A stretch of DNA of 64,000 nt from Streptococcus oralis (GTDB lineage Bacteria > Bacillota > Bacilli > Lactobacillales > Streptococcaceae), in contig NZ_CP023507.1 of NCBI RefSeq assembly GCF_002386345.1, positions 1,550,001-1,614,000 of the forward strand, in the 5' to 3' direction. The translations under genes were made by a program, and so were the position numbers. Of the stretch, positions 1 through 1,413 are shown piece by piece. Each line of letters begins with the position of its first letter. Within the stretch, counting starts at the first letter, position 1. The notes beneath the pieces were generated by a model. It was not told where the DNA came from and did no database searches. It saw only the letters and a program-made list of their open reading frames with translations.

Positions 1-1413
1 CATTGTTCTTGGTATCTTTAAATTTCAAGAAGACACCAAAGCGTGATTTGCCCTTTTCAGAATCATCTTTGAAGGTTAAATCAACTGTCGCATTTCCATT
101 AGCATCGACAGTCAATCCTTGTTTTTCAAACAAAGCTGGTTTGCCATCATTGTCATTTTGGGCCGTTGAAGACAATTGATTGTAGCGAACACCCTTTTCT
201 TCACGAATAGTGACGGTTCCTTGTTGCTCTTTATTCGCTACTGTTTGCCATTCAGGAGTTACTGCCTTAGGTGTTTCAGGTTTAGTAGCTGCAGGTTTAT
301 CCTCTTTTGGTTTTTCTTCAGCCGGTTTTCTTTCTCTTCCAAGTCTGCTGGTTTCACACTTGAAATTCCCTGTATGTGGTCCTGGATCCATTTTAGTTGA
401 GCTGGTGAGAAGAGAATGCCTCCGCTCCGTTTTCCAACTACACCATTTTGGTGAACACCGACTAGTTTGCCTTCTGTATCAAAGATACCGCCGCCACTAG
501 CACCCGGTTTTCCTCCTTGGTAACCAATCCCTTGGACACCTTCTCCGTATGGTTCCGCAAAATCAACTGTAGTATTGACAATCGGATTCAATTTTCCTTC
601 TGGATAACCAAAGACATGGAGCTTATCTCCAATTTTCTTAACTACTGGCTTTTTAGTTACTTCAACAGGCGTATTTTCTAGAACTGTACGCAATCTCACA
701 AGGGCCAAATCATTTTTGAAGCCTTTCAGATAGCCTTCACGATCCCAATGAATAATATCTTTCTTGCTAAACTTGACATCTGGCAATCCTGGATATGAGA
801 TGCTATAGATATCTCCATCCCCTTGGTCATTATCCACAACCTTACGGATATTGCCGTCTTGGCTATCCTTGATAAAGTTGTGAGAAACCGTCAAGACAAG
901 GTCTTTAGCAACGACAATACCGCTACCTTCTCCTGATGGCGTCTTAATCTTAACAGTCGCGCCGTAGTTTAATTCCCCATTGGTCGTTTTAGCCACATCT
1001 TCTGGGACGAGCTTGCCAGTATCTTGGGCCAATTGATCCTTGTCAACTTCGCGCCCATTGTCTTCAGCTTTCTCCAACTTATCTTCTAATTCTTTTGGCA
1101 GATTGCTTGGCTTTTCAGACTTTTCTTTTTCTTGAGCCAACAACTCTTCTTCTGTTTGTGGGCCTTCAGTAGTTTCAGCTGAACCAGGATTCTGAGCGGC
1201 AGCTTCCTTGTCAAAATCGTGCCCCTCATCACTAGCCTTCTTATCCAAATCAGCTAGTTCACTCGGCAAATTATCTGTTGAACCAACTCTTGCTTGATCA
1301 GCTAATACTGGGCTAGCTGCGAAGAAAGTCGCTCCAATCATCACCGAAGCTACTCCAAGCGTAAACTTACGAATACTGAACTTACAGCGTTTTTCAAAAA
1401 ATCGTTTATCCAT
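1..1413 (-). pseudogene. Endo-alpha-N-acetylgalactosaminidase (GH101) N-terminal part with inserted trypsin-like protease module; partial and frameshifted
   Basis: The gene starts at the ATG at 1413 behind an AGGAG and runs off the left edge. The intact frame encodes 384 residues and ends at 259. It has a YSIRK-type signal (KFSIRKFTLGVASVMIG, residues 11-27), two similar acidic helical stretches (near 48-70 and 103-127), and a trypsin/V8-like serine protease domain at about 148-350. The triad looks intact: His178 in TVSHNF, Asp235 in NDLALVRL, Ser306 in GASGGG. After about residue 362 the true frame continues one base over, at a T run (326-329) one base shorter than expected. The shifted frame is open to base 1 and encodes EKPAEEKPKEDKPAA, EWQTVANKEQQGTV and FGVFLKFKDTKNN. 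From memory these match the start of pneumococcal GH101 (SP_0368), which also lies beyond the cps locus. GH101 removes core-1 O-glycans from mucin. As I recall it, the pneumococcal protein lacks the protease module. Sequencing error cannot be excluded. Confidence 0.75.

What the first reader, a model, noticed from the sequence alone, without database searches (positions are those of the whole stretch)
1..1413. Serine protease module spliced between the YSIRK signal and a GH101 mucinase
The gene begins like pneumococcal GH101 endo-alpha-N-acetylgalactosaminidase and ends (in the shifted frame) with the same EKPAEEKPKEDKPAA...EWQTVANKEQQ sequence. About 250 residues with an intact trypsin/V8-type triad (His178, Asp235, Ser306) sit in between. 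The flanks both carry a GAGAAAGAAA/EKEK sequence, and two similar NLP-x-EL helices border the module, so it may have been gained or lost by recombination at short repeats. A surface enzyme joining proteolysis to mucin deglycosylation would be a striking combination. That the pneumococcal form lacks the module is from memory.
Basis: partly seen in the sequence, partly recalled or inferred. Interest (0 to 1): 0.72.

Follow-up and report, generated by a model that had tools for sequence, protein, structure and literature searches.

The report
Protease head on a streptococcal mucinase
Mouth streptococci carry a surface enzyme that fuses a serine-protease-like head to a mucin-sugar-cutting body; the fusion is real and already reported, the copy in this genome is broken by a frame shift, and the slot that holds the protease is exchanged, emptied or filled by other parts in related bacteria.

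Summary
Window 259-1413 (minus) encodes a YSIRK signal and a trypsin/V8-type domain (H178, D235, S306); the next frame runs left into a complete GH101 mucinase with LPXTG anchor. The chimera is not new: NCBIfam's SpGH101 model contains the protease, and a 2025 paper reports an extra S1B peptidase domain in commensal SpGH101 and ZmpA (PMC12211801). Of 94 Streptococcus GH101 loci, 65 have the module (62 in frame) and 29 lack it. Triad and S1-type His are invariant in 63 of 63 modules; dN/dS is about 0.045. Not found in print: pneumococcal-type GH101 nests among module-bearing S. oralis genes and lacks 795 nt; seven S. infantis-type genes keep a 93.6%-identical module on a 64.4%-identical GH101 body, the break lying in the linker; S. 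cristatus/sinensis hold a sialidase in the slot. In the window's strain a frame break separates head from body, so the fusion is probably not made there. Protease activity is untested.

The parts
1321..1395 (-). YSIRK-type signal peptide (residues 7-31)
   Evidence: PF04650 7.5e-13
1204..1272 (-). first NLP-x-EL helix (residues 48-70)
   Evidence: alignment to the second copy, 0 of 2000 shuffles as high
1120..1131 (-). left EKEK-coding A-rich repeat; left edge of the stretch missing in pneumococcal-type GH101
1036..1104 (-). second NLP-x-EL helix (residues 104-126), inside the gained/lost stretch
358..1005 (-). serine protease module (residues 137-352), S1B / V8-like
880..882 (-). catalytic His178
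   Evidence: H in 63 of 63 GH101-linked modules
709..711 (-). catalytic Asp235
   Evidence: D in 63 of 63
496..498 (-). nucleophile Ser306
   Evidence: S in 63 of 63
451..453 (-). His321, position of the S1 histidine of glutamyl endopeptidases (that role is recalled)
   Evidence: H in 63 of 63; an [IV]HQ motif is also present in the five other-context proteins looked at
328..343 (-). frame break between head and body, in the A-rich linker (the right EKEK-coding repeat lies here)
   Evidence: tblastn of the intact G119 protein switches frame here
1..391 (-). start of the GH101 frame: linker, then GH101_N; goes on left of the window to G000:C1:1544992 with GH101 catalytic domain and LPXTG

Best explanation
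The gene is the mitis-group form of the SpGH101 surface mucinase: YSIRK signal, N-terminal slot holding an S1B (V8/glutamyl-endopeptidase-like) protease module, Glu/Lys/Pro-rich linker, GH101 O-glycanase body, LPXTG anchor. SHOWN by sequence: anatomy; invariant triad; strong purifying selection; a related module in other surface proteins with glycosidase or M26 domains (fucosidase, sialidase, M26 metalloprotease); head and GH101 body exchanged against each other, with the break in the linker; absence of the module from pneumococcal-type GH101, best read as loss. INFERRED (about 0.45): the head is an active or activatable glutamate-preferring protease that cuts host glycoprotein backbones which the body strips of O-glycans, perhaps after its own release or activation by cleavage in the Glu-rich linkers. 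In the window's strain the head would be made and exported without anchor, and the GH101 body has no signal in its frame, so this copy is probably a recent inactivation (or one sequence error).
Against: The isolated related domain GhTrp (34% identical) showed no measurable activity on small chromogenic peptides and a peptide library, and has a malformed S1 pocket (PMC11970125); [quoted passage not shown] Pneumococci do without it. No activity could be tested here; Glu preference rests on one histidine and the fold. The first 94 residues of the model are low confidence and I had no coordinates, so an activating N-terminus and the S1 pocket could not be judged.
Confidence: 0.6

Rival explanations
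1. The head is a zymogen-like maturation or release device: it acts mainly on its own protein (or on sister surface proteins), trimming the N-terminus, and not on host glycoproteins.
For: GhTrp is described as pro-enzyme-like with activation by N-terminal excision (PMC11970125); in the 3 proteins looked at, the left linker is 21-23% and the right linker 15-17% Glu; LVP[ED]DVAK lies just before the domain in 55 of 63 rows.
Against: Pneumococcal GH101 is kept without the module; no cut site was tested; linker Glu may be only low-complexity spacer.
Confidence: 0.25
2. The head has lost protease function and serves as a binding or spacer domain.
For: No activity found for GhTrp, whose authors keep this possibility open.
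Against: His, Asp, Ser and the S1 histidine are invariant in 63 of 63 rows that span 62-100% identity to the window's module, and the HN, G-x-SGG and HQ motifs are kept in the fucosidase, sialidase and M26 proteins looked at; a pure binder would be expected to lose them somewhere.
Confidence: 0.2
3. The frame break in the window is a sequencing or assembly error and this strain makes the intact fusion.
For: It lies in an A-rich run; 62 module-bearing relatives are in frame through the junction.
Against: Of 44 G119 ORFs with a match in the window it is the only frame-split one; 43 are full length. A broken head also occurs in G123 (pieces in different frames, with stops), and SP0368 is marked 'fs' in a table of PMC2828477.
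Confidence: 0.4
4. Pneumococcal-type GH101 is the older form and the oral species gained the module.
For: More distant Streptococcus GH101 genes (suis, uberis, gallolyticus) and the outgroup rows that could be judged lack it, so a gain did happen deeper; the count of 4 changes cannot itself tell gain from loss.
Against: The pneumococcal-type gene L171 lies in a set of nine rows, 8 of them with the module, SH-aLRT 100, and its head is nearly the same as that of module-bearing L192. Recombination could blur this; the tree has SH-aLRT support only.
Confidence: 0.12

Closest known systems
SpGH101 family endo-alpha-N-acetylgalactosaminidase (NCBIfam NF040533)
   Same: The model of 1962 positions matches the head at 1-371 (709.5 bits) and the body at 363-1961; so the model itself includes the protease.
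   Different: In the window the two parts are in different frames; pneumococcal SpGH101 (PDB 3ecq) lacks the module.
Trypsin-like (S1B) domain of M26 IgA1 protease of Gemella haemolysans (GhTrp; 7uvk, 9ect)
   Different: There it precedes an M26 metalloprotease, here a glycosidase; 34% identical.
Glutamyl endopeptidases (V8, BGP, Esp) and Spl proteases
   Different: Those are free secreted enzymes (recalled); identity 16-25%.
Commensal SpGH101 with extra peptidase S1B domain (PMC12211801, Fig. 2 legend)
   Same: The same architecture, reported 2025 in commensal study strains.
   Different: The section and passages read give no junction, distribution, body exchange or slot alternatives; its supplement was not seen.

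Membership tests
GH101 (PF12905, endo-alpha-N-acetylgalactosaminidase) | GH101 catalytic domain over cut-off | tested here: met
   406.6 bits, cut-off 25, full profile 1-272
SpGH101 (NF040533) | whole-protein score over 2900 bits | tested here: met
   body ORF alone 3485.6 bits
SpGH101 (NF040533) | one reading frame from signal to anchor | tested here: not met
   frames differ at about 328-343; module and GH101 in one frame in 62 relatives
YSIRK/LPXTG sortase-anchored proteins | YSIRK signal and LPXTG anchor | tested here: met
   48.5 bits and 27.0 bits, but in the two separate frames
Peptidase family S1B (V8-like) | trypsin-like fold with His-Asp-Ser | tested here: met
   PF13365 47.8 bits over cut-off 27.6; triad 63 of 63; fold
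Peptidase family S1B (V8-like) | proteolytic activity, Glu in P1 | not testable with these tools
   no assay; His321 only a hint
M26 IgA1 protease | M26 metalloprotease domain in the protein | tested here: not met
   no M26 match in either ORF
Exfoliative toxin group (considered) | membership by sequence | tested here: inconclusive

The most novel reading that the evidence does not exclude
The GH101 locus of streptococci works as a cassette locus for attack on mucosal glycoproteins: signal and anchor stay, an N-terminal partner slot is filled by a protease (65 of 94), a second GH101_N domain (16), a sialidase (5) or none of these (8), and the GH101 body itself can be replaced behind an unchanged head by recombination in the linker. 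The protease module is a shared part also fitted to fucosidases, sialidases and M26 proteases, and pneumococci differ from oral relatives by having emptied the slot.
Probability: 0.45. Interest if true: 0.62.

Novelty: new variant of a known kind. Interest (0 to 1): 0.48.

Why it matters
The solved SpGH101 (3ecq) has an empty slot; the form with a protease is the commoner one across Streptococcus species (65 of 94 GH101 loci), and my searches brought up no assay of it. If the head is active, oral commensals cut both the sugars and the backbone of mucins with one anchored protein, and loss of that head is a defined difference between pneumococcus and its commensal kin. The shared module also gives a second, independent setting in which to settle the open question of what the trypsin-like domain of M26 IgA1 proteases does.

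Tried and rejected
Rejected: module as chance ORF (Pfam, fold, selection). Rejected: programmed frame shift; 62 relatives are in frame there. Repeat-driven deletion as a proven mechanism: only 9 nt at best, 30 of 500 shuffles, so kept as plausible only. A published pneumococcal marker peptide (PMC12687362) as species label: it also occurs in module-bearing L065/L142 and L192, so not used. Sp. DD10 (G209, L175) as a further frame-shifted case: its junction is an assembly gap of N, so unassessable. A GH101-fucosidase fusion in S. cristatus DD08 (L140): the join runs across an N gap and the open frames of the other four cristatus/sinensis genomes gave no fucosidase match, so dropped; the sialidase in the slot lies before the gap and is found in 5 of 5. 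Two tree rows called 'none' (L111, L122) have under 730 nt upstream and cannot be judged. In one search rows L204 and L210 came out empty through a fault in my cut and L183, L141, L198 were cut too long; the body-B loci were treated anew. A promoter scan upstream gave nothing above chance. Of the 25 ORFs only L241 holds an N run, at its C-terminal end behind the named domains.

Literature: searches (open-licence PMC only, so most subscription journals are missing). Seen: PMC11970125 (abstract and sections 1 to 3), PMC12211801 (section 12 and passages), PMC9637739, PMC11861894, PMC2828477, PMC3218663, PMC12687362 (passages only); the rest as search listings.

Full report
WHAT IS THERE. The window starts at G000:C1:1550001 of a single-contig 2,053,209-bp genome. 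On the minus strand, ORF 259-1413 (384 aa) has a YSIRK signal and a Trypsin_2 domain. A second frame, open leftward from 391 and running out of the window to G000:C1:1544992, is 1799 aa long and holds GH101_N, galactose-mutarotase-like domain, GH101 catalytic domain (406.6 bits), beta-sandwich, domain 5, galactose-binding domain, F5/8C and an LPXTG anchor. NCBIfam's SpGH101 model covers the head at 1-371 and the body at 363-1961. The frames meet at about 328-343. The nearest named row in the GH101 tree is S. oralis subsp. dentisani. The next gene to the left is another YSIRK glycosidase with GH20 and beta-N-acetylglucosaminidase domains.

THE FRAME BREAK. G119, whose GH101 core is 100% identical after rounding, has the gene in one frame. 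Of 58 G119 ORFs of 150 aa or more in the matching stretch, 44 hit the window; 43 are full length in one frame and one is split: this gene. So the break is isolated, though one error in an A-rich run cannot be excluded. 62 relatives are in frame through the junction; G123 has its head in pieces in different frames, with stops. In the window's strain the head would lack an anchor and the body lacks a signal in its frame.

HOW COMMON. PF12905 is found in 94 of 284 Streptococcus genomes. In those 94 loci the module is in frame with GH101 in 62, present but not in the GH101 frame in 3 (the window, G123, and G209, where the junction is an assembly gap), and absent in 29. Of the 120 best protein relatives listed (of 741), 119 carry PF13365; the exception P0113 shares strain name and contig length with P0117 and looks like another start call. 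Outside the genus the module was not seen at E 1e-10 in two drawn samples: matches in 24 of 395 genomes of the order, all in 1 of 80 genera, and in 6 of 398 of the class, 1 of 145 genera; the Gemella M26 domain shows that relatives exist elsewhere.

PNEUMOCOCCUS LACKS IT, BEST READ AS LOSS. PDB 3ecq (SpGH101) matches the head only over residues 42-108, before the protease. L171 (G157; 1767 aa) aligns to 3ecq over residues 40-1567 with few differences in the part printed, and has YSIRK and GH101 but no Trypsin_2. In a search with it, 19 of the 120 hits listed (of 704) lack PF13365; the seven of them that bear a name are S. pneumoniae, and the largest such cluster (98% identical, unnamed) has 9342 members. 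In the GH101 tree (108 rows, SH-aLRT only) L171 sits in a set of nine rows of which eight have the module (support 100). The label needs 4 changes on that tree, which by itself does not tell gain from loss. Against four relatives the missing stretch is 795 nt, a multiple of three, between A-rich EKEK-coding repeats (EKAK on the left in L193); the best ungapped split leaves 13 to 57 mismatches in 199 columns, the higher counts because I allowed no gaps in the linker. The repeat is only 7-9 nt exact in 60 loci scanned, and 30 of 500 shuffles reach 9 nt, so it marks the seam without proving the mechanism. A loose end: DD10 (L175), whose body belongs with S. cristatus (support 100), has a protease module only 53% identical to the window's, so slot content changed in that clade too.

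HEAD AND BODY ARE EXCHANGED. Seven S. infantis-type loci (L204, L206, L207, L208, L210, L212, L213) share 93.6% of the module with 14 other loci of that type, but only 64.4% of the GH101 core; within each group core identity is 98.6% and 96.7%. In the module tree the smallest starred set around L204 mixes all seven with four ordinary rows (support 96); in the core tree they are distant, next to a contig labelled Carnobacterium whose upstream part is missing. Along L188 against L208, nucleotide identity in 150-column steps is 80-99% from position 1211 through the upstream genes and head, 49-83% from the linker (5111) to 9743, and 83-100% from there through the C-terminus and the genes beyond. 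In L184 against L206 the head is 79-98%, the body 49-82%, and the downstream part 65-97%, but there the upstream flank too is unlike (47-61%), so the picture is less clean. Both bodies carry the full GH101 domain set. I read this as replacement of the mucinase behind an unchanged protease head at one locus.

OTHER TENANTS OF THE SLOT. Classing the 94 loci: protease 65, second GH101_N copy 16 (S. suis, S. pacificus and kin, S. hyovaginalis), sialidase 5 (S. cristatus, S. sinensis), none of these 8. The sialidase stretch is 97-100% identical to that of L140 in the five.

OTHER HOSTS OF THE MODULE. Of 25 ORFs with a module-like domain outside GH101, 13 were scanned with Pfam: 5 with alpha-L-fucosidase (one in the window's own genome at G000:C1:157814-163774, one also with a sialidase), 3 with sialidase and two trypsin-like domains, 3 M26 metalloproteases, 2 with two trypsin-like domains and anchor or choline-binding repeats. 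These modules are far from the GH101-linked ones (outgroup branch; 33-45% identity). PMC12211801 reports an S1B domain in ZmpA and a trypsin-like choline-binding protein; the searches listed brought up no text on the fucosidase and sialidase forms.

MECHANISM. Best reading: an anchored two-enzyme protein in which GH101 removes O-glycans and the head, active as such or after N-terminal processing, cuts the exposed backbone. The company the module keeps (O-glycanase, fucosidase, sialidase, IgA1 protease) and its constraint argue for a role on host glycoproteins; activity itself is not shown. VERDICT.

Noticed in passing
L246:5688-12167 (+), genome G157: The pneumococcal-type genome carries an M26 metalloprotease with a Trypsin_2 domain, although PMC11970125 names S. 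pneumoniae IgAP as the type without it.
   Followed up: no
L233:2815-8775 (-) = G000:C1:157814-163774: The window's own genome has a second YSIRK protein, 1986 aa, with the same kind of protease head before an alpha-L-fucosidase; the match is 38% identical.
   Followed up: partly
L140, L143, L153, L176, L189: S. cristatus/sinensis GH101 has a sialidase between signal and GH101_N.
   Followed up: partly
L205, L209, L211, L216, L218-L228, L231: A second GH101_N domain sits in the same slot in 16 loci; L133 (outside the 94) has three copies.
   Followed up: no
L241:919-8706 (-), genome G209: One 2595-aa open frame joins YSIRK, trypsin-like, alpha-L-fucosidase and sialidase domains; an N run lies only at its C-terminal end.
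   Followed up: partly
L111 (contig JUUF01000388.1): A contig labelled Carnobacterium maltaromaticum encodes a GH101 of the S. infantis body-B type; perhaps a mislabelled assembly or a transfer.
   Followed up: no
L002:1-4851 (-), left of the window: The neighbour gene is another YSIRK glycosidase, GH20 plus beta-N-acetylglucosaminidase, running off the fetched stretch.
   Followed up: no
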